Source: Thermoanaerobaculia bacterium
GTDB lineage: Bacteria; Acidobacteriota; Thermoanaerobaculia; Gp7-AA8
NCBI GenBank assembly: GCA_017883235.1
Contig: JADGNY010000023.1
Location: forward strand, 1 to 59,298
DNA length: 59,298 nucleotides
Direction: 5' to 3'
Numbering within the stretch: position 1 is the stretch's first letter; the number at the start of each line of letters is the position of its first letter. The position numbers and the translations under genes were made by a program. The notes under the pieces were generated by a model that saw nothing but the letters and a program-made list of their open reading frames with translations, was not told the origin of the DNA and did not search any database. Below, piece by piece: positions 5,259-57,277 of this stretch.

Positions 5259-5269
5259 GCGGCAGCGCC
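5227..5269. repeat. 43-bp direct repeat, copy 1
   Basis: Identical to 5730-5772 in the same orientation. Contains the last codons and stop of the GT2 gene. Together the two copies bracket a 460-bp segment that holds the 21-bp repeat array. Confidence 0.9.
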
Positions 5270-5294
5270 ACTGTTCTTGAAGAGGCCCACGCCG

Positions 5295-5588
5295 GCTCCG
5301 CGGAGCAGAAGAGTCGCTCCGCGGAGCAGAAAGTCAGCTCCCCAGAGCAGAAGAGTTGCTCCCCAGAGCAGAAAGTTAGCTCCCCAGAGCAGAAAGTTAG
5401 CTCCCCAGAGCAGAAAGTTAGCTCCCCAGAGCAGAAAGTCAGCTCCCCAGAGCAGAAAGTCAGCTCCCCAGAGCAGAAAGTCAGCTCCCCAGAGCAGAAA
5501 GTCAGCTCCCCAGAGCAGAAAGTTAGCTCCGCAGAGCAGAAAGTTAGCTCCCCAGAGCAGAAAGTTTGATCCGCAGAACAAACGTTTT
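5295..5588. repeat. Tandem array, 13 units of 21 bp plus one degenerate unit
   Basis: Thirteen units with perfect 21-bp spacing run from 5295 to 5567, and a decayed fourteenth ends at 5588. Each unit begins GCTCCCCAGAGCAG (first two: GCTCCGCGGAGCAG) and ends AAAGTTA, AAAGTCA or close. The GCTC-NNNN-GAGC core can fold into a tiny hairpin and is a perfect palindrome in the first two units. All reading frames are open simply because the period is a multiple of three. It lies between two convergent genes. No coding role is supported. Confidence 0.95.
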
Positions 5589-5729
5589 GGTCTGTAGAAT
5601 CAGGAAGTTAGCTCGGGAGAGTAGAGAAACTAATATCGAAAACGGGCAGTTGGTTCTCCGCTGAGCTCGAAGGACTGATCTCGCGGGAATAAATGGCTCG
5701 TCGCTCGGGAGGCAGCCGCACCTTCTGCG

Positions 5730-5772
5730 CGCGCGCCGCCATCAGAACGGCCACGACGTAGGCGGCAGCGCC
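5730..5772. repeat. 43-bp direct repeat, copy 2
   Basis: Identical to 5227-5269. This copy contains the last codons and stop (5742-5744) of the leftward membrane-protein gene. Because those codons continue smoothly into that protein, this copy may be the original. Confidence 0.9.
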
Positions 5773-41306: not shown

Positions 41307-44300
41307 TCAACTTCCGATGATTTCGACAGCCGCCCACAAGCCGGGCGGTGCATCGCGACGGTGGATACACTCGAGTTGGGTCGCCCGGAGTGCTTCGGCT
41401 GCCGGCAGGCGCTTGGCCAGTCGGCGATGAAGACGTGGGAAGAATTCGGCCGCGGGACCGTCCGCGATCGGCCACAGCGTCGCCACGACGCTCGGCACGC
41501 CAGCGGCCACGAAGGCGTGAGCGATGCTGATGCCGCGCGAGCCGGGGCCGCGCGCCGTGCTGCATGCGGCCAGCACGACGACGCGGACATCGGCGAGGTG
41601 CATCGACGCGATATCGCGGACATTGAGCACGTCGCTAGCAGTCGCAGAGGTGACGAGTGCCGCATCGGCGCTGCCGTCCGGCTCGACAGCGTGTCCGACG
41701 AAGTGGATGACATCGACGCCGGCAGTGCGCCCAGCGAGAGCATCGCGTTCGTCGTCATTCGGGCCGAGCGTGACCGAGTTGCGGTAGGCAGCAGCTACGG
41801 ACTCGGCTTCCCGGCGTGCCGCGGAGAGATCGCGAAGGTCTCCTTCTCGAGCCGGCGGCCCGACGATGATGAGGGCGCGCGGGCTCGACGAGGCGTGCCG
41901 CGTCTGTGACGCGAGCCGTGCGTAGACGGCAGCGCTTGGCGCGACAACGACGGGATGTTGCTCCACCAGATAGCGGCCATGAGGGTCGACGAGCGCGGAA
42001 AACGGAATCGTGCTCAACGTCATGTCGGGCACGAACACGACCATGTGCGCGGCATCAACGGAATCGCTTACGGGTGCGACCAATCGCGAATAGAGAGCAG
42101 CCGCGATCCGCCGGAATTCGTCGCGGTCGTCAGCCGCCGCACTGTTGGCCAGCCGCTGAGCCCACGCGGTGAGTGTGCTGCGGGTGACGTCCTGCTGCAC
42201 GACGCGCACGCGTCCGCGATCGGCGACGAAAATGACGAGGCTCTCCGGCAGCGACGCGTACTCGACGACGACCGTGTCCCCGGAAATGGCCTGCGACGGC
42301 AGCGAAGGTGCCACGCTGCCGACGCGGTCGAGGACGTCGCGGGCGCGAGAGTGTTCCGCATACGCGAGCGCCGCACGCGTATCGCCGCGCGAGACCGCGA
42401 GCGCCACGGCGTTATCGAACAACTCGCCGGCGGCGGTGAAGACGCCCCAGCGCTCATTTCCTGGATCGATCGACGTTCGCTGCGCCTCGAGCTCTGCAAT
42501 CGCGCGGTCGTAGTCTTCCGCTGCAGCGCTTCGGCTGCCGACGGCTTCGAGCGCACGGCCTCGCTCGAACAACATCTCCGGCAGAAAGATGCGTCGCCCC
42601 TTCACACGGTGAAACTCGATCGCCCGCGTCAGGAACGCGACGGCGTCGGAGGGGGACGCAAGACATGCTGCCACGGCGACGCGGTCGGCCTCGGCGTGTT
42701 CGCGCATGGCCGGATCGCCAAGGCGCGACATCGCGGCTGTGGCGCGAGCCAGGTCGTGCCCCGCCTCGCGCGAGTGCCCCATCCGCCCGTGCACCCGCGC
42801 GCGCAGCAGCAGCGTTTCGACGAGGGCCATGGTATCGCCCCGATCGACGACCTCGAGCTCCACGCTGAGGAACGACAAAGCGACTGGCCAATCGCGATCG
42901 AGAATGGCTGCTCGCGCGATCGATTCCACCACCACCCGGAGCCGCGGATTCTGCGTCCGGCCGATCTCGCGCAGGGCGATGATCCGGTGATGCCATGCCG
43001 CCGCAGGCTCGCCGATCTGATCGTAGACCTCGGCGAGAATCTCGCGAACCGCTGTCGCATTTCTCATTTCGCCGATGCGCTCGAACGTGGCCACGCTGTC
43101 GCGCAGCACGCGCATCGCCTCCCCCCAGCGGCCGAGCGACGCGTCTGTCAAACCGAGCTCCCATTCGGTCTGCGCCCGGTGCGCCGGCAACTCCGGCGGG
43201 GCGCCGGCCACGAGCACTTCGAGCCGCGCCCGGGCCTCGGCGATCCGCCCCTGATCGAAAGCAGTGTTCGCACCGAAGTAGCGAGCCGCGAGCGCGAGTG
43301 GGCTTCCACCTTCTTCGAAATGCGTGGCCGCCGTGGCGAACATCCTCTCGGCATCCGCCGGACGTCCGGCTTGATACGTTTTCTGCGCCCTGCGGAAGTC
43401 GACATGGGCGGTTGCCAGCGCACTCTTCCGCGGTTCGCCGGCGACCTCGATGGTGGCTACGGCGGACTGCAGCATCCGCTCGCCGCTGCGCGCGGCGAGC
43501 TCGTCGCCGAACGAGTGCGCGAGCTGCAGATGTTGATTGGCGGCAGCCACGTCGCGCGACTGCCATGCGTCAGCCCACTTGCCGAGGATCTCCGTCTCGC
43601 CCCAGAGCCGCGCTTCCTGTGGATAGCGGGTAGCCAGAGCCCGCGCCATTACCGGGTCGGCGGCGAGGCGCGCGTAATCGCGCTCAAGCTCCTGACCGAA
43701 CGAACTCTGTGTCCCGAGCACCCGCAGGTGCTGCCGCGCCTCGGTCGCCCATGAGGTCGTGGTGTCAACGGAGAGGTACTGCTGCCACGCCACGATGGCC
43801 TGTTCGCGAAGGCCGAGGCGCTCGAGGATCAGCGCACGATCGAACAACGCCTCCGGCAACTTCGGGTCGAGATTCAACGCGGCGTCGCACGCCGCCAAGG
43901 CCCGGGCCAGTTGCGGTGAGTCATCATTCTGCGTCGCGACCGCGAAGCGCGCCGCCGCGAGATCGGTCCAAATTCGCGCGTCGGAAGCGCTTGCGGCGAT
44001 TGGAAAGAGCAAAGCCGCCGCTTCGCGCGGGCGGCCGGCGACGAGGTGTGCGAGCGCCGCGGCGTGCTGCGCCTCGATGGAACGGTCACCGGCGGTCCTT
44101 TCGAGCACGTCGCCCGCTGCGCCCACGAGTTTCATCTGACCGGCGTCTAGCGGCTCGCTACTCGTCCGATGGGCCGGCCGTAGCGGTGCCCACGGGAAAC
44201 CGCCGCTCAGACGCGGCTCGACATAGCGGCCGTCTCGCGGTGCGGCCGCAACGAGCGTGCGAATTCCGGCGTTGCCGTGTCGGGCAGTCGTATACCAGTA

Positions 44301-44552
44301 GGAAAGACAAATGACGCCGATGAGGACTGCGGCGGCCGCGGCGAGCCACCGGGGCGACCACGACGGACGTTTCGCCACTACGGGCGCCTTCTCCTGGCGA
44401 GCGACGTAAGCCGTATCACCGAGGATCGTCCGGCAGTCTTCACATGTGCGCAGGTGGTCGGCCGTCATCTTCAACTCCGCTCCCGAAAGATTGCCGGCGA
44501 CAAACGCCGCAAGGACTTCCGGGTCGGGGCAGCGGTTCGATTCGCCGGTCAT
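41307..44552 (-). CDS. Anti-sigma zinc-finger / TM / TPR / CHAT protease fusion
   Basis: 1081 residues. 1-50: zf-HC2 anti-sigma finger (CPDPEVLAAFVAGNLSG; HLRTCEDC). About 67-88: TM helix (WLAAAAAVLIGVICLSYWYTTA). 150-700: TPR-rich superhelix (many A..LA...G... units such as LPEALFDRALILERLGLREQAIVAWQQYL). 760-1081: CHAT domain with catalytic His954 (HFVGHAV) and Cys997 (LAACSTARG), then AFVAAGVPSVVATLWPI. By topology the finger faces the cytoplasm and the TPR-CHAT part the periplasm. It overlaps the sigma-factor gene by 4 bp, so the finger presumably holds that sigma factor. Confidence 0.86.
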   Translation of the reverse strand: MTGESNRCPDPEVLAAFVAGNLSGAELKMTADHLRTCEDCRTILGDTAYVARQEKAPVVAKRPSWSPRWLAAAAAVLIGVICLSYWYTTARHGNAGIRTLVAAAPRDGRYVEPRLSGGFPWAPLRPAHRTSSEPLDAGQMKLVGAAGDVLERTAGDRSIEAQHAAALAHLVAGRPREAAALLFPIAASASDARIWTDLAAARFAVATQNDDSPQLARALAACDAALNLDPKLPEALFDRALILERLGLREQAIVAWQQYLSVDTTTSWATEARQHLRVLGTQSSFGQELERDYARLAADPVMARALATRYPQEARLWGETEILGKWADAWQSRDVAAANQHLQLAHSFGDELAARSGERMLQSAVATIEVAGEPRKSALATAHVDFRRAQKTYQAGRPADAERMFATAATHFEEGGSPLALAARYFGANTAFDQGRIAEARARLEVLVAGAPPELPAHRAQTEWELGLTDASLGRWGEAMRVLRDSVATFERIGEMRNATAVREILAEVYDQIGEPAAAWHHRIIALREIGRTQNPRLRVVVESIARAAILDRDWPVALSFLSVELEVVDRGDTMALVETLLLRARVHGRMGHSREAGHDLARATAAMSRLGDPAMREHAEADRVAVAACLASPSDAVAFLTRAIEFHRVKGRRIFLPEMLFERGRALEAVGSRSAAAEDYDRAIAELEAQRTSIDPGNERWGVFTAAGELFDNAVALAVSRGDTRAALAYAEHSRARDVLDRVGSVAPSLPSQAISGDTVVVEYASLPESLVIFVADRGRVRVVQQDVTRSTLTAWAQRLANSAAADDRDEFRRIAAALYSRLVAPVSDSVDAAHMVVFVPDMTLSTIPFSALVDPHGRYLVEQHPVVVAPSAAVYARLASQTRHASSSPRALIIVGPPAREGDLRDLSAARREAESVAAAYRNSVTLGPNDDERDALAGRTAGVDVIHFVGHAVEPDGSADAALVTSATASDVLNVRDIASMHLADVRVVVLAACSTARGPGSRGISIAHAFVAAGVPSVVATLWPIADGPAAEFFPRLHRRLAKRLPAAEALRATQLECIHRRDAPPGLWAAVEIIGS

Positions 44553-45391
44553 GACGAGATGTCCTCCTCCCCGACGTCTACCGCGCTCTTCCCTTCATCG
44601 GACGGACGCATGCCTCGTTTTTTTAGTTGAAAATCGAGAAGAGTCGTATCGTTGCCGATCAGCCGTTCCACGTCTGCAGCTTCGATCCCCGAGCTCGCGA
44701 GCCGCGCCCCCAATATCTGATAATGCCGATAAAGGCGCCGGAAGACCTTTTGCTGATCCAGGTGTAACGACGCAGCAACCTCGCGGACCGTCAGGTCGGA
44801 CTCGAAACGCAACTGAAGGATGAGCTGATCTTCCCCGGGCAGCTCGTCCAGATATCTGCTCACAACAGAGGAAATACGCGACGCCGTGTCGGCGCTCTCG
44901 ATGTCCGCGCCGGACTGCTGCGCGACCAAGGGCGGGGCTTCATCGATGCTCACCGTTCTTCGGCCCGTGCGCGGCCGAAGGCGGTCGGCGAGCGTTCCAA
45001 AATCCTCGCGCGTCAGCGACGGATACTGCTGCGACAGTGCCGCGAATGCCTCATCGAGCGTTCTCTTATCGCGGTATAAAACACGCTCGAGCGCAATGGC
45101 GACCGGACCGAGATGTTGCGCATTCGCCGAAGCGCGCCATTTGCCCCATCGCTGATTTCGATAGTCCAGCAACAGTTTGCTCACCACAGCGGCGAGATAC
45201 GTCTTGAAGCTGCTTCGGTTCGCGAAAGCCTTGATGATGGCGTAGTCGCGACTGACCAGTCGCAGCTTCACCTCGGCGGCGAATTCCTCGATTTCATCGG
45301 CGTCCATCCCCTTGCGAGCACAAATCGACTCGATGATCTGCTCGAGCAGGGGAAGACTTTCGATGAGGAGGCGTTCGCTCAACTCGGCCAT
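44549..45391 (-). CDS. Sigma-70-family (ECF-like) RNA polymerase sigma factor
   Basis: 280 residues from ATG 45391; a TTG start at 45454 would add 21 residues. Region 2: IEEFAAEVKLRLVSRDYAIIKAFANRSSFKTYLAAVVSKLLLDYRNQRWGKWRAS (core binding and -10 recognition). Region 4: ISSVVSRYLDELPGEDQLILQLRFESDLTVREVAASLHLDQQKVFRRLYRHYQIL, a clear HTH. The linker is longer than in minimal ECFs. Coupled by ATGA overlap to its apparent anti-sigma/CHAT partner. Regulon unknown; autoregulation is probable. Confidence 0.85.
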   Translation of the reverse strand: MAELSERLLIESLPLLEQIIESICARKGMDADEIEEFAAEVKLRLVSRDYAIIKAFANRSSFKTYLAAVVSKLLLDYRNQRWGKWRASANAQHLGPVAIALERVLYRDKRTLDEAFAALSQQYPSLTREDFGTLADRLRPRTGRRTVSIDEAPPLVAQQSGADIESADTASRISSVVSRYLDELPGEDQLILQLRFESDLTVREVAASLHLDQQKVFRRLYRHYQILGARLASSGIEAADVERLIGNDTTLLDFQLKKRGMRPSDEGKSAVDVGEEDISS

Positions 45392-45511
45392 CAGCCGGAC
45401 CAGACCTGCGGTGCGGCTCCTGCCGCCGACGCTCGGGAATTGCTTTGAACGCAAGAATACAACACTCTTGGCGTTTTCGACCTTCCTCCGGAGGTGAGGA
45501 AGGAGAGCAAT

Positions 45512-47038
45512 TCACTCCACGGCCATAAGCAAGACCGGGATGTGCCATTCCCGCTGGTTCGGCTGAAAGAAGATCGCTCGCCGCGCCTCGATCAGCGCAG
45601 TATCCAATACTGCGCCGTCGCTCAATGCCCCATACAGCTCTTCGGCTAGGAGGATTGCCGCGGGATCCGAGATCGGCTCCTGCATCGCTACGATGGCCGG
45701 TGCGCCGCAAGAGAGGAGGGCAGCCGCAATGCCGGACGTCGTGCCATCGTCGTGAAACTGGACGCCGTCGCAGGAATTCAGAACGACGAGGGCAAGCGTT
45801 GGGTGTTCTTTGAAGAGCGTTTCGAGCTCAGCACTGCTAACGTCGCGACGGCCGCCTGTGTCGTCGGTCATGACCAGTGCGTCGTCTCCGCCGTGGCCGA
45901 TGAAGTGCCACACATGATGCGGGCGACCAGCGTTCGCAGCGGCACGAAGGCGACGGCGCAACGCGCCGAAGCTCGAGCCGGCAACTACGTCGATTTCGAC
46001 GAGGCCTGACATCGTCAGCGGTGCCAGCGCTGCTTCGAGCGTAGCCTGTTCACGCGCACCGTCCAGAAGCGCGACGTCAGGCGGTGCGCTCACCATCAAG
46101 AGGAGACGAAGCGGCAGTCGGAACGCCGTCGACCGCCCCGGTTCGGTCGCGGCGACGTGCCGAGACAGCGACACTCGCGTGCTGAGGCCGAGAAACTGAT
46201 CGCCATCATGCAGTAACTCCCACCGAAGCGAGTGCAGTGCGCCAGCCTCGCGCGTGTCGAGCTGAATCCGCAGATTGCCCTGCGCGCGAGCACGCTGAAA
46301 TGCTTCCCCTACTTTTCCGGCAAAAACAAGGTCGAAAAGAGCACGGCCGAAGGGCTCGATACGCTCGGGCGACAACGGCGGGAATTCAAAGTGCTTCGGG
46401 AAAGTCATCCGCTCGGTTGCCAGCTCGCCTGCGCAGACTCGCCAGTGCCGCTGCCCGATGGCTTCAATGCGCAGTGGGAACGGGGAGAACGGCTTCGGTT
46501 CGAGCGCCATGCCGCGCGCCTCTTCGGCTGTGCAGGTGCCGAGATGCCGCGCGGCTTCCGCGGAAACGCGCATCAACTCGCGGTGCAGTTTCGTGCGCCA
46601 CTGCCGCTCTGGAACGTCATCACGATCTCTCCACTGCAACGTCACGCACGGCGTGAGGTCGACCGCCAACTGCTCGATCTCGGCATCTCCCTCTGCGCCG
46701 CGGCGGCGTAAGAACGACACGACGGCTGATGCCCAGCGGATCAGCCGTTCGTGGGTCTCTTCCGCGGCCGCGCGTTGCTCGTCTGTCAGCTCGAGCACTG
46801 TCACGAGCTGTCCGCCCTTGCGTTGGTGCCGGAAAGTCGCCGCGTTCGCGATCGAGAGCGTGCGATCGATGATCGCATCGAATTCCAGGCGGAGATGCCG
46901 CACGAATCGAGTTGCCACGTCGTTGCGCACACTCTTCAGACGACCGCAGGAGCCCGTTTTCCGCGCGAGATAGCTTGGACGTGCGGGTTGCAGTGGGTCA
47001 GTCGGTTTCACGGTTACAGAGTCGAGCATGGTGCCCAT
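45512..47038 (-). CDS. CHAT-domain caspase-like protease
   Basis: 508 residues from ATG 47038 (GAAGGA a few nt upstream; ATG 47029 also possible). The N-terminal 200 residues are helical, then beta segments. C-terminal CHAT: LPLRLLLMVSAPPDVALLDGAREQATLEAAL, HVWHFIGHGGDDAL (His382), LALVVLNSCDG (Cys423) and GIAAALLSCGAPAIVAMQEPISD. Cytosolic: no signal or TM. First gene of the leftward operon, 57 bp before the sigma gene, and divergent from the cox operon. It differs from the second CHAT protein in lacking TPRs and the anti-sigma finger. Confidence 0.86.
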   Translation of the reverse strand: MGTMLDSVTVKPTDPLQPARPSYLARKTGSCGRLKSVRNDVATRFVRHLRLEFDAIIDRTLSIANAATFRHQRKGGQLVTVLELTDEQRAAAEETHERLIRWASAVVSFLRRRGAEGDAEIEQLAVDLTPCVTLQWRDRDDVPERQWRTKLHRELMRVSAEAARHLGTCTAEEARGMALEPKPFSPFPLRIEAIGQRHWRVCAGELATERMTFPKHFEFPPLSPERIEPFGRALFDLVFAGKVGEAFQRARAQGNLRIQLDTREAGALHSLRWELLHDGDQFLGLSTRVSLSRHVAATEPGRSTAFRLPLRLLLMVSAPPDVALLDGAREQATLEAALAPLTMSGLVEIDVVAGSSFGALRRRLRAAANAGRPHHVWHFIGHGGDDALVMTDDTGGRRDVSSAELETLFKEHPTLALVVLNSCDGVQFHDDGTTSGIAAALLSCGAPAIVAMQEPISDPAAILLAEELYGALSDGAVLDTALIEARRAIFFQPNQREWHIPVLLMAVE

Positions 47039-47324
47039 ACGTCCTTCCGCCGCCGCGTCATGACAAAGAGGACAGCCAGCCACGCCGCCACGACGAGATC
47101 TGCCGCAAGGCGCAGCCCCAACGCTCCGGCGCGGGCGAACGTTGCTACGTCTGGCGGTGGCTCTGGCCACCGTGATGAGCTTGTCGGCATCGCCGGGCAG
47201 GTTCAACCGTTGCTCTGGACTGGCGTCGCAGCGATGGCGCCCGCGGGGATCGTCTCCACCCGCTCCTGTGCCATGAAGCGGAGGGTGTCCGCGCCTTCCG
47301 TCCGCAACATTCTGACGGCAATAC

Positions 47325-47353
47325 TTGACATTCCCACGCTCCGCGCGCATAAC
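47325..47353 (+). promoter_or_regulatory. Predicted promoter of the cox operon (TTGACA, 17 bp, CATAAC)
   Basis: TTGACA 47325-47330 and CATAAC 47348-47353, about 64 bp before coxM ATG 47418, leaving a normal leader with GGAGGG. It lies in the 379-bp divergent gap (47039-47417). The rest of the gap, which must carry the leftward CHAT promoter, shows nothing clear. Confidence 0.55.
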
Positions 47354-47417
47354 CCCGCCAGCCCCGGTCGCCACCGTTTTCAACGCTGCATGTCGCCAAC
47401 GTTTGGAGGGACAGGTA

Positions 47418-48290
47418 ATGATTCCGGCTTCGTTCGACTACTCCTCTCCGAAGACCCTTTCCGAAGCGATCTCGCTGCTGCAGCAACACGGTGCTGACGC
47501 GAAGATCCTCTCCGGCGGCCAGAGTCTGATTCCGCTGATGAAGTTGCGGATGGCGGCTCCGAAGCACGTCGTCGACATCAATGGCATCGACGGTCTCGCC
47601 TACATCAAGGAGTCCGGCGGTTTCCTCACGATCGGTGCGCTGACGCGCGAGGCCGACGTCGACGCGTCGCAGTTGGTCCACGATCGATATCCGCTGCTCG
47701 CCGACACCGCCGGCGTGATCGGCGATCCTCTGGTCCGCAACCTGGCCACGGTGGCGGGGAATCTCGCGCATGCCGATCCGGCCAACGACCATCCGGCGAC
47801 CATGCTGGCCCTCGGCGCCTCGGTCGTGGCAACCGGGCCGAAGGGCGCGCGCACCATCGCCATCTCCGATTTCTTCACCGGGATCTTCACCACCACCCTC
47901 GCGCCCGACGAGATCCTCACCGAGATCCGGGTTCCGATGCCGCAGGCGGGAAGCGGCGGCGCGTATCTGAAAGTGGAGAGAAAGGTGGGCGACTTCGCCG
48001 CGGCAGCCGTGGCCGTACAGATCACGCTCGACGGCGGCAGTTTCACGAGCGCGGGCATCGGTCTGACCAACGTCGGTCCCATGCCGATCAAGGCCACGCG
48101 CGCCGAGAAAGCGCTCGTCGGGAAGCCCGCGGTGGAGAGCACAATCGTAGAGGCCGCGCGCATCGCCGCGGAGGAGGCCGATCCGGCGGAGGATCTCCGC
48201 GGATCGGTTGATTACAAACGTTCACTGGTCCGCGTTCTGACCGCGCGTGCGCTACGGCTGGCCATCACCCGAGCGAAAGGGGAGCACTGA
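47418..48290 (+). CDS. coxM: Aerobic carbon monoxide dehydrogenase, medium (FAD) subunit
   Basis: 290 residues from ATG 47418 (GGAGGGACAGGTA upstream). FAD-binding segments [17 protein letters not shown] and [18 protein letters not shown], then [22 protein letters not shown] and the CO-DH flavoprotein C-terminal domain. It passes electrons from the 2Fe-2S subunit to FAD and on to the quinone pool or another carrier. First gene of the M-S-L order. Confidence 0.94.
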
Positions 48291-48291
48291 C

Positions 48292-48765
48292 ATGACCACC
48301 CGCAAGATCACTGTCAACGTCAACGGTACTCCTCGGGAAGGGGAGGTCGAACCGCGCCTGCTGCTGGTCCACTTCCTCCGCGAAGATCTTTCCATGACCG
48401 GCACGCACATCGGCTGCGATACCACGAGCTGCGGCGCCTGTACGGTGCTGCTCGACGGCAAGGCCATCAAGTCGTGTACGGCGTTCGCCGTCCAGGCCGA
48501 TGGCCGCGAGGTGATGACCGTCGAAGGTCTGGAGAAGGATGGCAAGCTCGATCGCATCCAGGAAGGGTTTCATCAGGAGCACGGCCTGCAGTGCGGCTTC
48601 TGCACACCGGGCATGATGATGACCACCTACGCTCTTCTGAAGAACAACCCCTCGCCCAGCGAGCATGACATCCGCTGGGGGATTTCAGGGAACCTATGCC
48701 GCTGCACCGGTTACGTCAACATCGTCAAAGCCATTCAGTACGCCGCGCAGAAGCCGGCGGAATGA
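48292..48765 (+). CDS. coxS: Aerobic carbon monoxide dehydrogenase, small (2Fe-2S) subunit
   Basis: 157 residues. N-terminal plant-type cluster: Cys42, Cys47, Cys50 and Cys62 ([16 protein letters not shown]...SC). C-terminal cluster: Cys101, Cys104, Cys136 and Cys138 (QCGFCTPG ... LCRCTGY). All eight ligands present. It begins one base after the coxM stop. Confidence 0.96.
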
Positions 48766-48778: not shown

Positions 48779-51154
48779 ATGAGCAGCACCACACCTCGCA
48801 CCTCTCCCGAAGTCGGCGGCATGGGCCACTCCATCAAGCGCAAGGAAGACGCGCGTTTCCTGCGCGGCCAGGGAAAGTTCGTCGACGACGTCAAGCTCCC
48901 GGGCATGCTCTACCTCGACATCGTGCGCAGTCCGTACGCGCACGCGAAGATCACCAAGATCGATACCTCGAAGGCGATGGCCATCCCGGGCGTGCTGGCG
49001 GTCGTCACCGGCGAGCTTCTCAAGCAGTACAACCTGCACTGGATGCCGACGCTGATGTCGGATACGCAGATGGTGCTGCCGGTCGAGAAGGTCATGCATC
49101 AGGGGCAGGAGGTTGCGGCTGTTCTGGCCACGAGCCGCTACATCGCCGCCGACGGCGTGCAGGCGGTCGAAGTCGACTACGAACCGCTTCCGGTAGTCGT
49201 CGATCCATTCAAGGCGCTCGAGCCCGGCGCGACGGTTCTGCGCACCGACAAGGAAGGGAAGACCGACAATCACATCTGGCACTGGGAAGCGGGCGACAAG
49301 GCCGGCACCGAACAGGCCTTTGCCCAGGCCGAGGTCACGGTCAAGCAGGACATCTACATACCGCGGATCAACGTCGCCTCCATCGAGACGTGCGGTTGTG
49401 TCGCCCATTTCAATAAGACCGACGGCAAGCTCACCGTCTGGATGACCACCCAGGCGCCGCACGCCATTCGCACGGTCTTTGCGCTCGTCGCCGGCCACGT
49501 CGGACTCTCCGAGGAGAAGATCCGCATCATCTCGCCGGACATCGGCGGCGGCTTCGGCGGCAAAGTTCCGGTCTACCCCGGCTATGTAATCGCCGTGGCC
49601 GCCTCGGTGCTGACCGGGGCGCCGGTGAAGTGGATCGAGGATCGGATCGAGAACCTCCAGGCCTCGTCATTCGCGCGCGATTACCACATCACCGCCGAGC
49701 TCGCGGGGAAGAAAGACGGCACGATGCAGGCGCTGCGCTTCAAGACCATCGCCGACCACGGCTACACCGACGCTGCGGCGAATCCGTCGAAGTTTCCGGC
49801 CGGTCTCTTCCACATCGCCACCGGTTCGTACGACTTCCAGCATGCCTTCATGGAGGTCGATGCCGCGTACACGAACAAGCCGCCGGGAGGCATCGCCTAT
49901 CGCTGCTCGTTCCGCGTCACCGAAGCCGTACACGCCATCGAGAGGATGGTCGACATCTTCGCCAAAGACATCGGGATGGATCCGGCCGATCTCCGCAAGA
50001 AGAACTTCATCAAGCCGGACCAGTTCCCCTACAAGTCGCAGTTCGGGTTCGAGTACGACAGCGGCAATTACATCGGCGCGCTCGATCTGGCCATGAAGCG
50101 CATTGGGTACGACGACCTGCGGAAAGAGCAGGCCGAAAAACGTGCGAAGGGAGAGCTGATGGGCATCGGCATCTCCAGTTTCACCGAGATCGTCGGCGCC
50201 GGTCCCTCGAAGCATTACGACATTCTCGGCATCAAGATGTTCGACAGTTGCGAGCTGCGCATCCATCCCACCGGAAAGGCCATCGCGCGCTTCGGGACGA
50301 AGTCGCAGGGGCAGGGACACGAGACCACGTACGCGCAGATCATCGCCGAGGAGTTGGGGATCCCCGCGGAACACATCGCCGTCGAGGAAGGCGACACCGA
50401 CACGGCACCATACGGGCTCGGTACCTACGCCAGCCGCAGCACCCCGGTGGCAGGGGCGGCGGGGGCGATGGCCGCACGCAAAGTGCGCGACAAGGCGCGG
50501 AAGATCGCCGCCTACCTTCTCGAGGTCGCCGAAGAGGATCTCGACTGGGAGCCTGGAAAGTTCTTCGTCAAGGGCTCGCCGTCGAAGTCGAAGACCATCC
50601 AGGAGTGCGCCTTCGCCGCGTACACGAACAATCCGCCGGGGATGGAGCCGGGCCTGGAGGCGGTGAACTACTACGATCCGCCGAATCTCACCTACCCGTT
50701 CGGCAGCTACATCTGCGTCGTCGACATCGACAAGGGCACGGGGCAGGTCAAGGTCCGCCGCTTCGTGGCCGTCGACGACTGCGGGAACATCATCAATCCG
50801 ATGATCGTCGACGGACAGATCCACGGCGGCCTGGCGATGGGCCTCGCGCCGGCGCTGTACGAGGAGATCAATTACGACGCCGACGGCAACATCCAGGGCG
50901 GAAGCCTGATGGACTACCTTGTGCCGACGTCGATGGAAACGCCGAGCTGGGAGACCGACAAGACCTGTACTCCTTCTCCACACCATCCCATCGGCGCGAA
51001 GGGAGTCGGCGAGTCGGCCACCGTCGGCGCGCCGCCTGCGATCGCCAATGCCGTCGTCGATGCGCTCTGGCATCTCGGCGTCCGACACATCGACATCCCG
51101 ATCACGCCGCCCAAGGTGTGGGCGTTGTTGAAGGAAAAGGGAGTCGCGGAGTGA
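48779..51154 (+). CDS. coxL: Aerobic carbon monoxide dehydrogenase, large (molybdenum) subunit, form I
   Basis: 791 residues from ATG 48779 with GGAGGG upstream. Xanthine-oxidase-family fold: KRKEDARFLRGQGKFVDDV, GGGFGGKVPVYPG (Mo cofactor loop) and TKSQGQGHETTYAQI. The active-site loop reads AYRCSFR at residues 373-379 (49895-49915), the AYXCSFR signature of form I CoxL, whose Cys (here Cys376) binds Cu in the Mo-S-Cu centre. Form II-like hydroxylases have AYRGAGR there. HHPIGAKGVGESATVGAPPAIANA is the usual C-terminal MoCo block with the catalytic Glu. So a genuine CO-oxidising enzyme is predicted. Confidence 0.96.
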   Translation: MSSTTPRTSPEVGGMGHSIKRKEDARFLRGQGKFVDDVKLPGMLYLDIVRSPYAHAKITKIDTSKAMAIPGVLAVVTGELLKQYNLHWMPTLMSDTQMVLPVEKVMHQGQEVAAVLATSRYIAADGVQAVEVDYEPLPVVVDPFKALEPGATVLRTDKEGKTDNHIWHWEAGDKAGTEQAFAQAEVTVKQDIYIPRINVASIETCGCVAHFNKTDGKLTVWMTTQAPHAIRTVFALVAGHVGLSEEKIRIISPDIGGGFGGKVPVYPGYVIAVAASVLTGAPVKWIEDRIENLQASSFARDYHITAELAGKKDGTMQALRFKTIADHGYTDAAANPSKFPAGLFHIATGSYDFQHAFMEVDAAYTNKPPGGIAYRCSFRVTEAVHAIERMVDIFAKDIGMDPADLRKKNFIKPDQFPYKSQFGFEYDSGNYIGALDLAMKRIGYDDLRKEQAEKRAKGELMGIGISSFTEIVGAGPSKHYDILGIKMFDSCELRIHPTGKAIARFGTKSQGQGHETTYAQIIAEELGIPAEHIAVEEGDTDTAPYGLGTYASRSTPVAGAAGAMAARKVRDKARKIAAYLLEVAEEDLDWEPGKFFVKGSPSKSKTIQECAFAAYTNNPPGMEPGLEAVNYYDPPNLTYPFGSYICVVDIDKGTGQVKVRRFVAVDDCGNIINPMIVDGQIHGGLAMGLAPALYEEINYDADGNIQGGSLMDYLVPTSMETPSWETDKTCTPSPHHPIGAKGVGESATVGAPPAIANAVVDALWHLGVRHIDIPITPPKVWALLKEKGVAE

Positions 51155-51162
51155 GACTCTTT

Positions 51163-51262
51163 GGGTTGCTGGGTTGCGAGGTTGCTGGGTTGCAGGGTGA
51201 GCGTATGCCGAATCCTGGGTCTTCCTACTCAGTAACTCAGCAACTCAGCAACTCAGCAACCG
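51163..51262. repeat. Imperfect hairpin of GTTGC-type short repeats after coxL
   Basis: Left arm 51163-51194 (GGGTTGCTGGGTTGCGAGG...) and right arm 51229-51262 (CAGTAACTCAGCAACTCAGC...) are complementary with mismatches, around a loop of about 34 nt. Same word set as the hairpin at 18261-18347. It stands between coxL and the maturation genes and could reduce expression of the latter. Confidence 0.6.
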
Positions 51263-51269
51263 GTACCCT

Positions 51270-52790
51270 ATGATTTCCGCCATCGTCCTGGCCGCGGGCC
51301 AGGCCACGCGTTTCGGGCAGTGCAAGCAGGTGCTCCGCCTCGGCGGCAAGACGATCCTCGATCACGCGCTCGACAACCTCCGCGCATCGAAGATCGACGA
51401 CGTCGTCATCGTGCTCGGAGCGCACGCGGACGAGATCCGGGAAAAGGTCCGCCTGCTCGAAAGCGATGCCGAGCGCATCGTGACGAATCCCGATTTTGCG
51501 AGCGGCATGAGCTCATCCATTCAGGCCGGCCTGCGTGCCCTTTCCGAGGCGGCTGAGGCGGCAATGATCGTCCTCGGCGATCAGCCGTTCGTCACGCCGC
51601 GTACCATCGATCTGCTCATCGATGAGTACCGCCGCACCGGCGCCAGCGTGGTCGTCCCGACCTACAACGGATTTCGCGGAAACCCCGTGATCGTCGACCG
51701 GTCGCTCTTCGGCGAGATGCTGGGCATCCGCGGCGACGTCGGCTGTCGCGCCATTTTCGGCGACCACGTGCAATCGATCGCCAAGGTGCCGGTGGACGAC
51801 CGCGGCGTGCTGGTCGACATCGACACCAGGGAAGACTTCGACACGTTAGTGGGAGAGAGTCCGATGGGGGAGCCTTTACAACCATACGTCACGGCCACCG
51901 TCGTTCGCGCGGAGCGGCCGACGTCGTCGAAGCCCGGCGACAAGGCGGTCATCAACGCCGACGGAACACTCACCGGCTGGATCGGCGGAAGCTGCGCGCA
52001 TGACCTCGTGGTGAAGAACGCGCTCGAGTCACTTCGCGACGGCGAGCCACGCCTGCTGGCCCTCAGCGCCGGAGACTTGACGCCCTCGCGCTCCGGCGTC
52101 ATCGGCGCGCAGATGCAGTGCTACAGCGGCGGCGCACTCGACATCTTCATCGAACCGCATTTTCCGGTACCACAACTGATCGTGGTCGGCACGCAGCCCA
52201 TCGCGCGATCGCTGGTCAAGATCGGGAAAACGCTCTCGTTTCACGTGACGGTGGTCGATCCGCTGGCCACCCGCGAGACCGTGCCGGCTGCCGACGCCAT
52301 CCTGAACGAGCTGAACCTCTCGGCCTTGCCGCTACGGAACGAGTTCTACATCGTCGTCGCCACCCACGGCCGTTTCGATGAGGAGGCACTCGAGCAGGCG
52401 GTACAGACGGAAGCGCCGTACATCGCCCTCGTGGCCAGCCGGAAGCGCGGCGCCGTGATCGTCCAGCACCTGCGCGAGCGCGGGGTCCCCGAGGCGGCGC
52501 TGGCCCGGATCAAGGCCCCGGCGGGATTGGACATCGGAGCTCGTGGCTCGGACGAGATCGCGCTGAGCATCCTTGCGGAGATCGTTCAGTTGCGGCGGAG
52601 TGGAGCGGCGGCGGTGACCGAGGCGCCCGCGCCGCCGGAAAGCGCGACCGATCCGATCTGCGGGATGACCGTCGCGGTCGCGGAGGCCAGCCACGTAGCG
52701 GAGCACGACGGGCGCCGTTTCTACTTCTGCTGCGAGCATTGCCAGCACACATTCGAGCACGACCCGCATCGTTACGCCCATGTCGCATGA
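51270..52790 (+). CDS. MocA-like nucleotidyltransferase / XdhC-CoxI / YHS triple fusion
   Basis: 506 residues. 1-195: MobA/MocA-type NTP transferase (MISAIVLAAGQATRFGQCKQVL; LGDQPFVTP; GNPVIVDRSLF), which attaches CMP to molybdopterin. About 200-255: XdhC/CoxI N-terminal domain (GTLTGWIGGSCAHDLVVKNAL). 300-440: XdhC Rossmann domain (PQLIVVGTQPIARSLVKIG; PYIALVASRKRG). 460-506: YHS domain (DPICGMTVAVAEASH...YFCCEHCQHTFEHDP) with Cys suited to metal binding. All parts point to building and inserting the cofactor of CoxL. The YHS part is an unusual addition. Confidence 0.88.
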   Translation: MISAIVLAAGQATRFGQCKQVLRLGGKTILDHALDNLRASKIDDVVIVLGAHADEIREKVRLLESDAERIVTNPDFASGMSSSIQAGLRALSEAAEAAMIVLGDQPFVTPRTIDLLIDEYRRTGASVVVPTYNGFRGNPVIVDRSLFGEMLGIRGDVGCRAIFGDHVQSIAKVPVDDRGVLVDIDTREDFDTLVGESPMGEPLQPYVTATVVRAERPTSSKPGDKAVINADGTLTGWIGGSCAHDLVVKNALESLRDGEPRLLALSAGDLTPSRSGVIGAQMQCYSGGALDIFIEPHFPVPQLIVVGTQPIARSLVKIGKTLSFHVTVVDPLATRETVPAADAILNELNLSALPLRNEFYIVVATHGRFDEEALEQAVQTEAPYIALVASRKRGAVIVQHLRERGVPEAALARIKAPAGLDIGARGSDEIALSILAEIVQLRRSGAAAVTEAPAPPESATDPICGMTVAVAEASHVAEHDGRRFYFCCEHCQHTFEHDPHRYAHVA

Positions 52791-53868
52791 GACCTTCGAA
52801 CTGCTCGAGCAGCTCCGGCGCGCGCGGACGCGCGCGGCGATGGCCACTCTCGTGCGCACCCACGGGACCACGCCGCGCAAGGAAGGGACGACCATGTTCG
52901 TCGGGGAGGACGGCGGCGTCTTCGGCTCCGTCACCATCGGCGGCTGCGTCGATGCGCGGGTGATGGAGCACGCGGGCGAGGTCGTCGCCGAAGCGACACC
53001 GCGCCTGCTGGATCTCCAGCTCGGCGACGAGGAAGCGTGGGAGATCGGACTCACGTGCGGTGGCACGGTCGATGTCTTTCTCGAGCCGGTCACAGACAGC
53101 CTGCTGGAGCTTTACGAGACGGCGCGCAATGCCTGGCAGTCGGGACGAAGCGTGGCGCTGGCGGCGATCATCGCCGGCGACGGGCTTGGCTCGCGCCTCC
53201 TGATCGATGCGAACGGCGTGGTGAGCGGAATCGCTCCCAAGGCGGTCGTCGAGTTGCTGGCCCGTGACGTTCCGCGCCTGCTTCGCTCGTCCACCGGCTC
53301 ATCGACGATCGCATTGGAAGGATCCGAGGTCTACATCGAGCTTCTTCGCCCGCCGGTGACGCTGGTGATCTTCGGCGCGGGCGCGGTCTCGATCCCGTTG
53401 GTCGACTTCGCGAACGCTCTGGGATTGAAGACCGTCGTCGTCGACGGCCGTCCGCAGTTCGCCAACCGCGAACGCTTCGCCAATGCCGGCGAGCTTCGCG
53501 TCGGTATCGTCTCCGAGATCGCCGCGGAGCTGGCCATGGGGCCCGCCACTCCTGTCGTGCTCACGGCTCACGACTACAAGATCGACGTTCCCGTTCTGAA
53601 ACGGGTGCTCGCCAGCGAGGTTCCGTACGTCGGTCTGCTCGGGAGCCGGAAGCGCGGAGCGGCCATCCTGCAGATGCTGCGCGAGGAGGGGGTTGCAGAG
53701 GAACAGTTGGCCCGCGTGCGCGTCCCGGTCGGCCTCGACATCGGTGGTGAGACGGCGGCGGAGATCGCGCTCAGTATCGCTTCCGAAATCGTGGCGGTGA
53801 TGCATGGACGAAATGGATCGCCGCTGAGCGCAAGAGCTGTGACGGCGGCAGTGCTGCAACCATCATGA
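52780..53868 (+). CDS. XdhC/CoxI-CoxF family molybdenum-enzyme maturation factor
   Basis: 362 residues. XdhC N-terminal domain: LVRTHGTTPRKEGTTMFVGEDGGVFGSVTIGGCVDARVM and LGLTCGGTVDVFLEPV-like block (read IGLTCGGTVDVFLEP). C-terminal Rossmann domain: VTLVIFGAGAVSIPLVDFANALGLKTVVVDGRPQFANRERF and YVGLLGSRKRGAAI. Family members protect and sulfurate MoCo before insertion. Overlaps the fusion gene by 11 bp; its Rossmann part is paralogous to the fusion's middle part. Confidence 0.9.
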   Translation: MSHETFELLEQLRRARTRAAMATLVRTHGTTPRKEGTTMFVGEDGGVFGSVTIGGCVDARVMEHAGEVVAEATPRLLDLQLGDEEAWEIGLTCGGTVDVFLEPVTDSLLELYETARNAWQSGRSVALAAIIAGDGLGSRLLIDANGVVSGIAPKAVVELLARDVPRLLRSSTGSSTIALEGSEVYIELLRPPVTLVIFGAGAVSIPLVDFANALGLKTVVVDGRPQFANRERFANAGELRVGIVSEIAAELAMGPATPVVLTAHDYKIDVPVLKRVLASEVPYVGLLGSRKRGAAILQMLREEGVAEEQLARVRVPVGLDIGGETAAEIALSIASEIVAVMHGRNGSPLSARAVTAAVLQPS

Positions 53869-54406: not shown

Positions 54407-54778
54407 ATGATCCCATACGGTGAGGTCATTCACGATCACTCCCGCCATCCGCGCAACGTCGGTTCGCTCGATGCGCCCGACATCCGTCGCGAGGGGTACA
54501 ACCCCTTTTGCGGTGACCGGGTGCGCATTGAGCTGGCGCTGGCGCCCGACGGCACCGTGCGGGATGCGCGGTTTCAGGGAGACCTCTGTGTGATCGCCAA
54601 GGCGGCCGCTTCGGTATTGACGGAACTGGTCATCGGCCTCCCGATCGAGGGGGCACGCGATCTTCCGGAAGAGCGGCTGCTCGAGGCGCTTCGCGCTGAG
54701 ATCCAACCGGCGCGGCGGAAATGCGCCCTGCTGGCCTTCGAAACGCTGCAATCAGGAATCAAGGAGTCCGGACGATGA
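54407..54778 (+). CDS. NifU N-terminal / SufU-like Fe-S scaffold or sulfur-transfer protein
   Basis: 123 residues. VIHDHSRHPRNVGSLDAPDIRREGYNPFCGDRVRIEL with Cys35 and Asp37, FQGDLCVIAKAAASVLTELVIG with Cys61, and PARRKCALLAFETL with Cys106: the three Cys plus Asp ligand set of U-type scaffolds/SufU. It lies in the CO dehydrogenase cluster, ATGA-coupled to coxG, so a role in CoxS clusters or in sulfuration of the Mo centre is plausible. GAGGAA precedes the ATG. Confidence 0.83.
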   Translation: MIPYGEVIHDHSRHPRNVGSLDAPDIRREGYNPFCGDRVRIELALAPDGTVRDARFQGDLCVIAKAAASVLTELVIGLPIEGARDLPEERLLEALRAEIQPARRKCALLAFETLQSGIKESGR

Positions 54779-55221
54779 ACTTCCATGGAACCGTGACCAT
54801 CGATGCACCTCGCCAGAAGGTCTGGCAGTATCTGACCGATCCCGAGAAAGTGACGGAGTGCGCGCCGGGGCTGGAGTCGGTCGAGGTGATTACCCCGAAT
54901 GAGAAATTTCGAGCTGTGGCATCGGTCGGCTTCGGCGCGGTAAAGGTGAAGTTCACCGTCGATGCCGAGTGGGTCGAGCTCGATCCGCCCAATCGCGCCG
55001 GCATGAAGATCCAGGGGAAGGCACCCGGCAGCGGCGTGACCGGTACGAGTGAGATGTCGCTCAGCGATGCGGCCGGAGGCGCTACGCTGCTGACGTGGTC
55101 GGCCGACATCACCATCATCGGCGCGATCGCCAGTCTCGCGGCGCGCCTGATGGGCGTCGTGACCAAGACGCTGACCAACACGTTCTTCGAGTGCGTGCGC
55201 AAGAAGATCGAGGCGAAATGA
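54775..55221 (+). CDS. coxG: CoxG-like SRPBCC protein
   Basis: 148 residues. MNFHGTVTIDAPRQKVWQYLTDPEKVTECAPGLESVEVI is the CO dehydrogenase subunit G start (START-like fold), then GFGAVKVKFTVDAEWVELDPPNRAGMKIQGKAPGSGVTGTSEMSL. CoxG helps recruit the enzyme to the membrane and couple it to quinone. Overlaps its neighbours on both sides by 4 bp. Confidence 0.9.
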   Translation: MNFHGTVTIDAPRQKVWQYLTDPEKVTECAPGLESVEVITPNEKFRAVASVGFGAVKVKFTVDAEWVELDPPNRAGMKIQGKAPGSGVTGTSEMSLSDAAGGATLLTWSADITIIGAIASLAARLMGVVTKTLTNTFFECVRKKIEAK

Positions 55222-56105
55222 AAACGCCAATGAAGTCAATCGACGAGCTGCAGGCCGCGCTGCGCGACCGCCACTACTTCGCGGACCGCGGGCTGGCCAC
55301 GACTATCTTTCTGGCGCTCCACCTTGGCAAGCCGCTCTTCCTGGAAGGAGAGGCTGGTGTTGGCAAGACCGAAGTGGCCAAGGTCCTGGCGGCCATCCTC
55401 GACACGGAGCTCATCCGCCTGCAGTGCTACGAAGGACTCGACGTCCACCATGCTGTCTACGAGTGGAACTACACGCGGCAGATGATGCACATCCGCCTGA
55501 TGGAGACGCAGGGGCAGCGGCCGGCGGAGGCGGAGCTCTTCGGCCCCGACTTCCTGTTGCGCCGTCCTCTGCTGCGAGCCATCGAACACGTAAAACCGGC
55601 AGTCCTGCTCATCGATGAAGTGGACCGCAGCGATGAGGAGTTCGAGGCCTTTCTGCTCGAGATCCTTTCCGACTTTCAGATCACCATCCCCGAGATCGGC
55701 ACGATCAAAGCCGTGCAGCCGCCGGTTGTGGTGGTGACCTCCAATCGCACGCGCGAAGTCCACGATGCGTTGAAACGGCGCTGCCTCTATGCCTGGATCG
55801 ACTATCCGTCGTTCGAACGTGAGCTGGAGATCGTCCTGTCGAAGGTCCCGGACGCTCCCGCGGCGCTGGCCCGGGAGATCACGGCATTCGTGCAGGAGTT
55901 GCGTCAGGCGGATCTCTACAAGGTGCCGGGCATCGCCGAGACGCTGGAATGGACCGCCGCGCTCGTCGCTCTCGACCGCGACGCGCTCGACGAGTCGGTG
56001 GTCGGCGACACTCTCGGCGTCCTCCTCAAATACCGCGACGACATCGAGAAGGTGCAGGGCGATGAGGTGGCCACGATCCTCGGCCGTGTCCGGGCAGGAG
56101 CATGA
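55218..56105 (+). CDS. coxD: MoxR-type AAA+ ATPase CoxD
   Basis: 295 residues from ATG 55218. Walker A GEAGVGKTE, Walker B AVLLIDEVDRSDEEFEAFLLE, sensor 1 VVVVTSNRTREVHDALKRRCL. CoxD is the chaperone that helps build the CuSMoO2 site of CoxL in form I systems. 4-bp overlaps with coxG and coxE. Confidence 0.94.
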   Translation: MKTPMKSIDELQAALRDRHYFADRGLATTIFLALHLGKPLFLEGEAGVGKTEVAKVLAAILDTELIRLQCYEGLDVHHAVYEWNYTRQMMHIRLMETQGQRPAEAELFGPDFLLRRPLLRAIEHVKPAVLLIDEVDRSDEEFEAFLLEILSDFQITIPEIGTIKAVQPPVVVVTSNRTREVHDALKRRCLYAWIDYPSFERELEIVLSKVPDAPAALAREITAFVQELRQADLYKVPGIAETLEWTAALVALDRDALDESVVGDTLGVLLKYRDDIEKVQGDEVATILGRVRAGA

Positions 56106-57277
56106 GCGGCGCGCTGCTTCACAATCTCGTGCTTTTCGGCCGGGTCCTGCGGCGTCTGGGTATGGACGTTCATCCCGGGCGCCTGGCCGATCTGGTTGCG
56201 GCCCTGGAGGTCGTTTCGATCCGCAACCGGTTCGACTTTCAAACTGCCGCGCGCAGTCTGCTCGTGCACCGGCACGAAGACCTGGCGCGATTCGACGATG
56301 CGTTCGAGGCGTTCTTCACGCGCCGCGACCCGCTGGCGCGCCCGCACGTGCGCGTGAGCGGCCAGTTGCAGCGCAAGCAGGGAGCGCCGCTGCCGATGTT
56401 CGCCAACGCGAATGCTCCCGATGCCGCCGGCGCGGGATCGTCCGACGAATCGGCGACGGCCGAGGTCCTGACCTACAGCGGGCGGGAGATCCTTCGGCGG
56501 AAGGACTTCGCGGAGATGACGCCCGACGAGTTGCAGGCGGTGAAGGCGCTCATGTCCGAGATCGTCTGGCGTATCCGGCAGCGGAAGACGCGACGGCTGC
56601 GGCCGGGACGCGGGCCTCTTCTCGATCTCCGGTGCACCGTGCGGCGCAACCTCCGCTATGGCGGCGAGGTGCTCGACTGGGCCAGGCGGGAACAGAAATG
56701 GAAGCCCCGGCCGATCGTGATCATCGCCGACGTCAGCGGCTCGATGGAGCGTTACTCGCGGCTTCTGCTGCTCTTCGCCTGCGGCCTGGCGAAAGCGCTG
56801 AATCAGAAGGTGGAGGCGTTCGTCTTCAGCACCCGTCTCACCCGCATCACCCGGCAACTGCGGCAGCGAAACGTCGAACGCGCCCTTCGCGAGGTTTCGC
56901 AGGCCGTTCCCGACTGGTCCGGCGGCACGCGCATCGGCGAGGCGCTGCACACCTTCAATTTCCAATGGGGACGCCGCGTCCTCGGCCAGGGAGCGCTGGC
57001 CCTGGTCATCAGCGACGGCTGGGACCGCGGCGACATCGGTCTGCTGGCCAGCGAGATCGCCCGCCTCCACCGCTCCAGTCATCGCCTGGTCTGGCTGAAT
57101 CCGCTCCTCGGTGCACCCGACTACGAGCCGCTCACGCGCGGCATCCAGGCAGCGCTCCCGTTCATCGACGACTTCCTCCCGGTCCACAACCTCGACAGCC
57201 TCGCCGCGCTCGCCGAGCATCTGGCGGTCCTCGACGAGCGTGGACGTGGTCCGAGGCGCGTGCGACAAAGTGGTTGA
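56102..57277 (+). CDS. coxE: VWA-domain protein CoxE
   Basis: 391 residues. N-terminal helical region, then a von Willebrand A domain starting at PIVIIADVSGSME with the MIDAS Asp210-x-Ser-x-Ser, plus FSTRLTRITRQL, WSGGTRIGEAL and VISDGWDRGD. Works with CoxD as a MoxR-VWA pair in copper/sulfur insertion. Last gene of the cluster. The final about 10 residues (RGPRRVRQSG) run toward a palindromic repeat. Confidence 0.93.
   Translation: MSGALLHNLVLFGRVLRRLGMDVHPGRLADLVAALEVVSIRNRFDFQTAARSLLVHRHEDLARFDDAFEAFFTRRDPLARPHVRVSGQLQRKQGAPLPMFANANAPDAAGAGSSDESATAEVLTYSGREILRRKDFAEMTPDELQAVKALMSEIVWRIRQRKTRRLRPGRGPLLDLRCTVRRNLRYGGEVLDWARREQKWKPRPIVIIADVSGSMERYSRLLLLFACGLAKALNQKVEAFVFSTRLTRITRQLRQRNVERALREVSQAVPDWSGGTRIGEALHTFNFQWGRRVLGQGALALVISDGWDRGDIGLLASEIARLHRSSHRLVWLNPLLGAPDYEPLTRGIQAALPFIDDFLPVHNLDSLAALAEHLAVLDERGRGPRRVRQSG

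What the first reader, a model, noticed from the sequence alone, without database searches (positions are those of the whole stretch)
51270..52790. MocA-XdhC-YHS triple fusion inside the cox cluster
A CMP transferase for MoCo, an XdhC insertion/sulfuration module and a C-terminal YHS domain with a CCEHC cluster are joined in one 506-residue protein. YHS/TRASH domains bind metals and occur in copper ATPases. The CoxL site needs Cu. I propose the YHS part supplies or guards Cu while the rest prepares MoCo, giving a one-protein assembly line.
Basis: partly seen in the sequence, partly recalled or inferred. Interest (0 to 1): 0.65.

Follow-up and report, generated by a model that had tools for sequence, protein, structure and literature searches.

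The report
Copper-delivery CoxF with MocA fused on
The protein is a version of CoxF, the factor that puts copper into carbon-monoxide-oxidising enzymes, carrying a small copper-pump-type metal-binding (YHS) domain found on XdhC-family proteins only in genomes with the copper-containing CO dehydrogenase; the extra MocA domain at its front is a rare local fusion.

Summary
ORF 51270-52790 encodes MocA (4-166), XdhC (204-263, 303-438) and YHS (460-504) in one 506-residue protein behind a form I CoxL. The unit that matters is XdhC-YHS, not the triple fusion. This XdhC is a CoxF: it falls in the CoxF clade and carries C-x-S-x-G, found in 134 of 148 CoxF-like and 0 of 65 other XdhC proteins. Among loci chosen by CoxL alone, an XdhC-YHS gene lies beside 36 of 49 form I (Cu) coxL genes and 0 of 51 form II or other genes. 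Of 102 XdhC-YHS proteins collected, 95 lie beside form I coxL; the other 7 are in genomes with intact, truncated or fragmentary form I-like coxL. In 30 genomes, 18 of 80 XdhC domains carry YHS, all of them the CoxF. The YHS has the ligand set of a YHS shown to respond specifically to Cu, and resembles those on Cu-ATPases. In Oligotropha, coxF disruption removes Cu but not Mo or sulfur from CODH. Best reading: the YHS loads Cu for insertion at Mo-S. Against: alphaproteobacterial CoxF lacks YHS yet works, and metal binding is untested. The MocA fusion occurs in 2 of 102. New variant of a known kind.

The parts
51270..52790 (+). MocA-CoxF-YHS fusion, 506 aa
   Evidence: same order in L035
51279..51767 (+). 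MocA-like NTP transferase domain (residues 4-166), motifs LAAG, GDQP, RGNPV, GDVG kept
   Evidence: Pfam 137 bits; TIGR03310 172 bits, below cut-off 186; solved relatives 3d5n, 2waw, 2we9
51851..51866 (+). GGGAG followed 8 nt later by an in-frame ATG (M199): possible internal start for a CoxF-YHS without MocA (speculative)
   Evidence: read from sequence
51879..52058 (+). XdhC_CoxI domain (residues 204-263)
   Evidence: Pfam 58 bits
52119..52133 (+). CoxF signature C284-Y-S286-G-G288 (C-x-S-x-G), two residues longer than canonical CGG; same place as the suspected Cu motif M107CPSHGTM of Oligotropha CoxF
   Evidence: alignments, counts, PMC4240915
52176..52583 (+). XdhC Rossmann domain (residues 303-438)
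   Evidence: Pfam 112 bits; AF2 pLDDT >90, Foldseek to 3on5/2we8 E about 1e-18
52647..52781 (+). YHS domain (residues 460-504), ligand set D461-x2-C464-x22-C487-x3-C491
   Evidence: PF04945 47.3 bits; spacing as in M. phlei cyclase YHS and conserved in homologues
48779..51154 (+). CoxL, form I (AYRCSFR), the presumed Cu recipient
   Evidence: TIGR02416 1240 bits, cut-off 991
47418..48290 (+). CoxM
   Evidence: Pfam FAD_binding_5 and CO_deh_flav_C
48292..48765 (+). CoxS
   Evidence: Pfam Fer2, Fer2_2
52780..53868 (+). Separate XdhC (CoxI-like, CGG type, no YHS); candidate for Moco insertion/protection
   Evidence: Pfam; outside the CoxF clade
54407..54778 (+). NifU/SufU-like scaffold protein
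   Evidence: Pfam NifU_N
54775..55221 (+). CoxG
   Evidence: Pfam COXG
55218..56105 (+). CoxD, MoxR-type AAA+ ATPase
   Evidence: Pfam AAA_5, NCBIfam MadB-like
56102..57277 (+). CoxE, VWA protein
   Evidence: Pfam VWA_CoxE

Best explanation
The protein is CoxF, the XdhC-family factor needed to put Cu(I) on the Mo-bound sulfur of form I CO dehydrogenase, in its common YHS-bearing form, here also fused to the host's only MocA-like protein. Proposed mechanism: the YHS domain, tethered to the XdhC core by a short flexible linker, binds copper through D461, C464, C487 and C491. It passes the copper to the C-x-S-x-G site of the XdhC core, which docks on folded CoxL with CoxE and releases Cu(I) onto Mo-SH. 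MocA makes the cytidylated cofactor earlier in the same pathway. Shown here: domain content, CoxF membership, exclusive link to form I CoxL, ligand conservation. Shown by others in Oligotropha: loss of CoxF (with CoxE) removes Cu but not Mo or sulfur. Inferred: Cu binding by this YHS, the relay, and any benefit of the MocA fusion.
For: XdhC-YHS beside 36/49 form I and 0/51 form II/other CoxL in CoxL-chosen samples (window's own phylum 3/4, Actinomycetota 16/20, phylum of HRbin26, probably Chloroflexota, 17/17, Pseudomonadota 0/8). All 102 XdhC-YHS proteins are in genomes with form I-like CoxL: 95 nearby, 7 resolved genome-wide, 3 of these only from truncated or fragmentary hits below the cut-off. 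In 30 genomes 18 of 80 XdhC_C domains carry Pfam YHS, each the CoxF of the cox locus. All fall in one XdhC clade that holds Oligotropha CoxF; 7 changes of YHS state against about 64 for shuffled labels. C-x-S-x-G in 134/148 CoxF-like, 0/65 other XdhC. CoxF mutant: Cu 0.043 against 1.47, Mo 1.85, S 1.40 mol/mol (PMC4240915). M. phlei YHS makes a cyclase respond to Cu and to no other transition metal tested, with the same D-x2-C-x22-C-x3-C ligands (PMC4626032). YHS of CPC-type P-ATPases score 41-68 bits with the CoxF-YHS model.
Against: No metal-binding data for any CoxF-YHS. Alphaproteobacterial CoxF, including the only one tested genetically, has no YHS, so the domain is not indispensable. In that mutant CoxE was missing too, so the Cu defect belongs to the pair. 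YHS need not bind metal: in the solved toluene-4-hydroxylase none is bound (PMC4626032). Deinococcus CoxF-YHS has lost the first two ligands. Relative placement of YHS and core is uncertain in the models (pTM 0.58 and 0.76; linker pLDDT about 60-78).
Confidence: 0.7

Rival explanations
1. The YHS is a Cu sensor or buffer (or a sequestering guard) on CoxF, not the delivery site; the C-x-S-x-G site of the XdhC core does the delivery in all CoxF proteins.
For: YHS-less alphaproteobacterial CoxF keeps C-x-S-x-G (CPSxG) and works (PMC4240915). In M. phlei cyclase the YHS acts as a sensor.
Against: YHS is confined to CoxF among XdhC proteins and kept across many phyla, which suits a part in the Cu step itself; this does not separate sensor from donor.
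Confidence: 0.2
2. The YHS is structural or a docking module (Zn or no metal) that recruits CoxF to CoxE, CoxD or a Cu-ATPase.
For: YHS without bound metal exists in toluene-4-hydroxylase (PMC4626032); weak sequence similarity to a phenol hydroxylase component of known structure.
Against: Full ligand set kept in at least 96 of 102 homologues and the close look-alikes found are on Cu-ATPases.
Confidence: 0.1
3. One reading: a one-protein assembly line in which XdhC inserts and sulfurates Moco and YHS adds Cu.
For: MocA and XdhC domains are there and are often neighbours (MocA within 300 bp of CoxF-YHS in 27 of 102, two of them fused). XdhC of Rhodobacter interacts with MobA (PMC2997495).
Against: CoxF loss leaves Mo and sulfur in the enzyme, a separate CoxI-like XdhC and CoxD are encoded beside it, and the MocA fusion is found only in two genomes of one family.
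Confidence: 0.07
4. The MocA part is an accident of read-through between neighbouring genes, with both parts working apart, perhaps through an internal start at M199. (Compatible with the best explanation, which does not depend on the fusion.)
For: In G006 the roughly 72-residue linker looks like a translated intergenic palindrome; in the window the junction is short and low in GC3 (0.45 against 0.85); an ATG at 51864 has a well-placed GGGAG.
Against: Frame kept in two genomes of different genera; no stop in either. The internal start would omit the first helix of CoxF.
Confidence: 0.4

Closest known systems
CoxF of Afipia (Oligotropha) carboxidovorans OM5 (WP_013913733, 280 aa)
   Same: Same clade of XdhC, place in the cox cluster, short linker between XdhC halves, C-x-S-x-G at its suspected Cu motif M107CPSHGTM; required with CoxE for Cu in CODH (PMC4240915)
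   Different: No YHS domain and no MocA
CoxF-YHS of Thermomicrobium roseum (WP_143714800), Paraburkholderia aromaticivorans (WP_035477365) and Natronorubrum bangense (WP_006068000)
   Same: XdhC-YHS in the form I cox cluster; full or nearly full ligand set (Asn replaces Asp in Paraburkholderia)
   Different: No MocA; annotated only as XdhC family protein
YHS domain of M. phlei adenylyl cyclase (PMC4626032)
   Same: D-x2-C-x22-C-x3-C; Cu-specific response
   Different: Attached to a cyclase; sensor rather than metal donor
YHS of CPC-motif P-type (Cu) ATPases (e.g. L241, L242, L243)
   Same: DPVCGM...FCxxxC, 41-68 bits with the CoxF-YHS model
   Different: N-terminal on a pump; FCS/FCN/FCG rather than FCC
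Canonical XdhC / CoxI
   Same: Fold and Rossmann domain
   Different: CGG instead of C-x-S-x-G, long linker, never YHS here; acts on Moco sulfuration and insertion
MocA
   Same: LAAG/GDQP/RGNPV/GDVG motifs; makes the cytidylated cofactor used by CODH
   Different: Normally a separate protein

Membership tests
CoxF | XdhC-family domain pair | tested here: met
CoxF | Groups with Oligotropha CoxF apart from CoxI/XdhC | tested here: met
   Tree without the YHS part: 142-row branch holding all CoxF-like rows 100 (SH-aLRT), 139-row CoxF clade 93
CoxF | C-x-S-x-G in place of CGG | tested here: met
   CYSGG 284-288; 134/148 CoxF-like, 0/65 others
CoxF | Beside form I coxL | tested here: met
CoxF | Required for Cu in CODH | not testable with these tools
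   Known for Oligotropha only (PMC4240915)
YHS (PF04945) | Score above gathering cut-off | tested here: met
   47.3 against 30.3 bits
YHS (PF04945) | Ligand set D/C-x2-C-xn-C-x3-C | tested here: met
   D461, C464, C487, C491
Cu-binding YHS | Binds Cu | not testable with these tools
   Only by homology to M. phlei cyclase
TRASH (PF24273) | Score above cut-off | tested here: not met
   22 against 27 bits; file as YHS
MocA (TIGR03310) | Score above equivalog cut-off | tested here: not met
   172 to 175 against 186.45 bits; called MocA-like
MocA (TIGR03310) | CTP-specific transfer to Mo-MPT | not testable with these tools
   LAAG motif and CODH context only
Canonical XdhC (TIGR02964) | Score above cut-off | tested here: not met
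   31 against 161.6 bits

The most novel reading that the evidence does not exclude
YHS-bearing CoxF is the general copper metallochaperone of Mo/Cu CO dehydrogenase in bacteria and archaea. Its YHS domain is a mobile Cu carrier that feeds a second site in the XdhC core, which would be the first YHS domain assigned to building a metalloenzyme. The alphaproteobacterial model system lost this domain and so hid it from study. In the window's lineage the factor is physically coupled to cofactor cytidylation.
Probability: 0.45. Interest if true: 0.75.

Novelty: new variant of a known kind. Interest (0 to 1): 0.62.

Why it matters
How Cu(I) reaches the Mo-S of CO dehydrogenase is still an open question; the one genetic study worked with a CoxF lacking this domain and had to propose a phytate route. 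A Cu-pump-like domain on CoxF in most other lineages sampled, found on XdhC proteins only with form I CoxL, gives a concrete, testable Cu donor. It also gives two genome markers (XdhC-YHS and C-x-S-x-G) for telling Cu CO dehydrogenase from form II relatives.

Tried and rejected
Triple fusion as the conserved unit: rejected, 2 of 102 XdhC-YHS proteins. Sequencing or assembly error as the cause of the fusion: unlikely, second genome agrees. L062 as an XdhC-YHS beside form II: form I-like CoxMS starts on its other side and the genome has form I CoxL. First AF2 model: MocA part poor (pLDDT about 30-65) since the alignment held no MocA homologues; only XdhC-YHS is used. Papers joining YHS with CO dehydrogenase or XdhC: none in the open library; subscription journals not covered. 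Model coordinates and PAE were not available, so the YHS-to-core distance was not measured.

Full report
What is there. The ORF 51270-52790 on + encodes 506 residues with a MocA-like NTP transferase (4-166), the two XdhC domains (204-263 and 303-438) and a C-terminal YHS domain (460-504, 47.3 bits against a cut-off of 30.3). It lies between coxMSL (CoxL form I, AYRCSFR, TIGR02416 1240 bits) and a separate XdhC, a NifU-like protein, CoxG, CoxD and CoxE. This MocA is its only strong match to TIGR03310; the others score 52 bits or less. The only other YHS in the genome is in an unrelated small protein.

The fusion is real but rare. In 120 relatives XdhC-YHS occurs repeatedly without MocA; the triple order is seen only here and in G006, a genome of the same family but another genus. 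In G006 the two parts are joined by about 72 residues that read like a translated intergenic palindrome (TTGTCATCCCCGGCGATAGCGAGGGATCTGG ... CAGATTCCTCGCTACGCTCGGAATGACA); in the window the joint is about ten residues with low GC3 and the first helix of CoxF is missing. In relatives G007 and G011 a stand-alone MocA 57-65% identical sits directly before the same separate XdhC and NifU-like genes, so a CoxF-YHS gene appears to have landed between them (inference). Over all collected loci MocA is fused in 2 of 102 XdhC-YHS proteins and lies within 300 bp in 27, the two fused ones included.

The XdhC part is CoxF. Aligned with named proteins, it shares with Oligotropha CoxF a short joint between the two XdhC halves, the GWIGG-x-C stretch and C-x-S-x-G where canonical XdhC has CGG. 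This is the stretch in which Pelzmann and co-workers suspected a Cu site, M107CPSHGTM (PMC4240915). The motif is in 134 of 148 proteins scoring above 115 bits with the CoxF model and in none of 65 other XdhC proteins. On trees with and without the YHS part, all YHS-bearing XdhC proteins and the YHS-less alphaproteobacterial CoxF fall in one clade; YHS changes state 7 times against about 64 with shuffled labels, which fits one gain and several losses, one of them at the base of the alphaproteobacterial group. An older review already noted that CoxF groups with XdhC homologues of other CODH operons (PMC2997495).

The YHS tracks copper. To avoid choosing loci by the feature in question, CoxL was searched with TIGR02416 in four phyla and 100 stretches were read. 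An XdhC-YHS gene lies beside form I CoxL in 3 of 4 (window's own phylum), 16 of 20 (Actinomycetota, centred on Trujillonella), 0 of 8 (Pseudomonadota, centred on Rhizobium) and 17 of 17 (phylum of Bacterium HR26, a near relative of Thermomicrobium, probably Chloroflexota), and beside form II or other CoxL in 0 of 51. Several of the actinobacterial misses are cut by contig ends. From the other side, 102 XdhC-YHS proteins were collected; 95 have form I CoxL on the same stretch. Of the other 7, whole-genome searches found form I CoxL above the cut-off in 4 and, in 3, truncated or fragmentary hits below the cut-off with form I-like score density. In 30 genomes of many phyla 18 of 80 XdhC_C domains have Pfam YHS directly behind them, each being the CoxF of the cox locus (intersected by coordinates). 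Loci are related by descent, so no p-value is given.

Why Cu. In Oligotropha, CODH from the coxF mutant has Mo 1.85, sulfane sulfur 1.40 and Cu 0.043 mol/mol against 1.73, 1.53 and 1.47 in the wild type grown alike; CoxE is missing in that mutant too (PMC4240915). The M. phlei cyclase YHS makes the enzyme respond to Cu and to none of six other metal ions, probably through D178, C181, C204 and C208 (PMC4626032); the window has D461, C464, C487 and C491 with identical spacing, and 96 of 102 homologues keep DPxC and CxxxC. YHS domains of eight CPC-motif P-type ATPases from the same genomes score 41-68 bits with the model built from CoxF-YHS. AlphaFold2 gives a confident XdhC core and YHS joined by a poorly fixed linker (mean pLDDT 91, pTM 0.76 for the relative L057), as expected for a swinging carrier; the core matches solved XdhC structures.

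Mechanism, with status. MocA cytidylates Mo-MPT (family knowledge). Moco insertion and protection fall to the separate CoxI-like XdhC and sulfuration to CoxD (inferred; CoxD from the Oligotropha work). CoxF with CoxE adds Cu(I) (shown in Oligotropha). YHS loads the Cu and the C-x-S-x-G site passes it on (inferred, not tested). Lineages without YHS must load the core site another way.

Limits. The first YHS sample was chosen by similarity to XdhC-YHS and is used only for the reverse count; form calls use the AYxCSFR/AYRGAGR motifs (the usual form I and form II signatures) and identity to the window's CoxL; absence of prior description rests on an open-access library only.

Noticed in passing
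54407-54778: A NifU/SufU-like scaffold protein sits in the cox cluster, and with the separate XdhC and a stand-alone MocA in relatives G007 and G011; only 2 of 102 XdhC-YHS loci have it within 3 kb. Possibly a sulfur carrier for Mo sulfuration.
   Followed up: partly
L035 (G006) 4047-6116, linker between MocA and CoxF: The in-frame linker looks like a translated intergenic inverted repeat (GTCATCCC...AGGGATCT / AGATTCCTCGCTACGCTCGGAATGAC).
   Followed up: yes
L137 4431-5741: A MocA fused to only the Rossmann half of a CoxF-like XdhC, next to a form I cox cluster that also has a full CoxF-YHS.
   Followed up: partly
L055 17616-18677 (Deinococcus sp. AJ005): CoxF-YHS in which the first two metal ligands are lost (SPVDG), a natural ligand variant.
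   Followed up: no
L062: Myxococcaceae contig with a form II cox cluster and the start of a form I cluster on either side of MocA and CoxF-YHS.
   Followed up: partly
51155-51269: The spacer before the fusion is an imperfect palindrome of GGTTGCTGGGTTGC / GCAACTCAGCAACTC units.
   Followed up: no
41307-47383, - strand: Two large ORFs whose translations look like CHAT-type peptidase proteins flank a sigma-factor-like ORF directly upstream of the cox cluster.
   Followed up: no
L061 4539-5444, L137 6516-7421, L133 9941-10819: A sister group of CoxF without C-x-S-x-G and without YHS; one member lies in a genome with no form I CoxL above the cut-off.
   Followed up: partly
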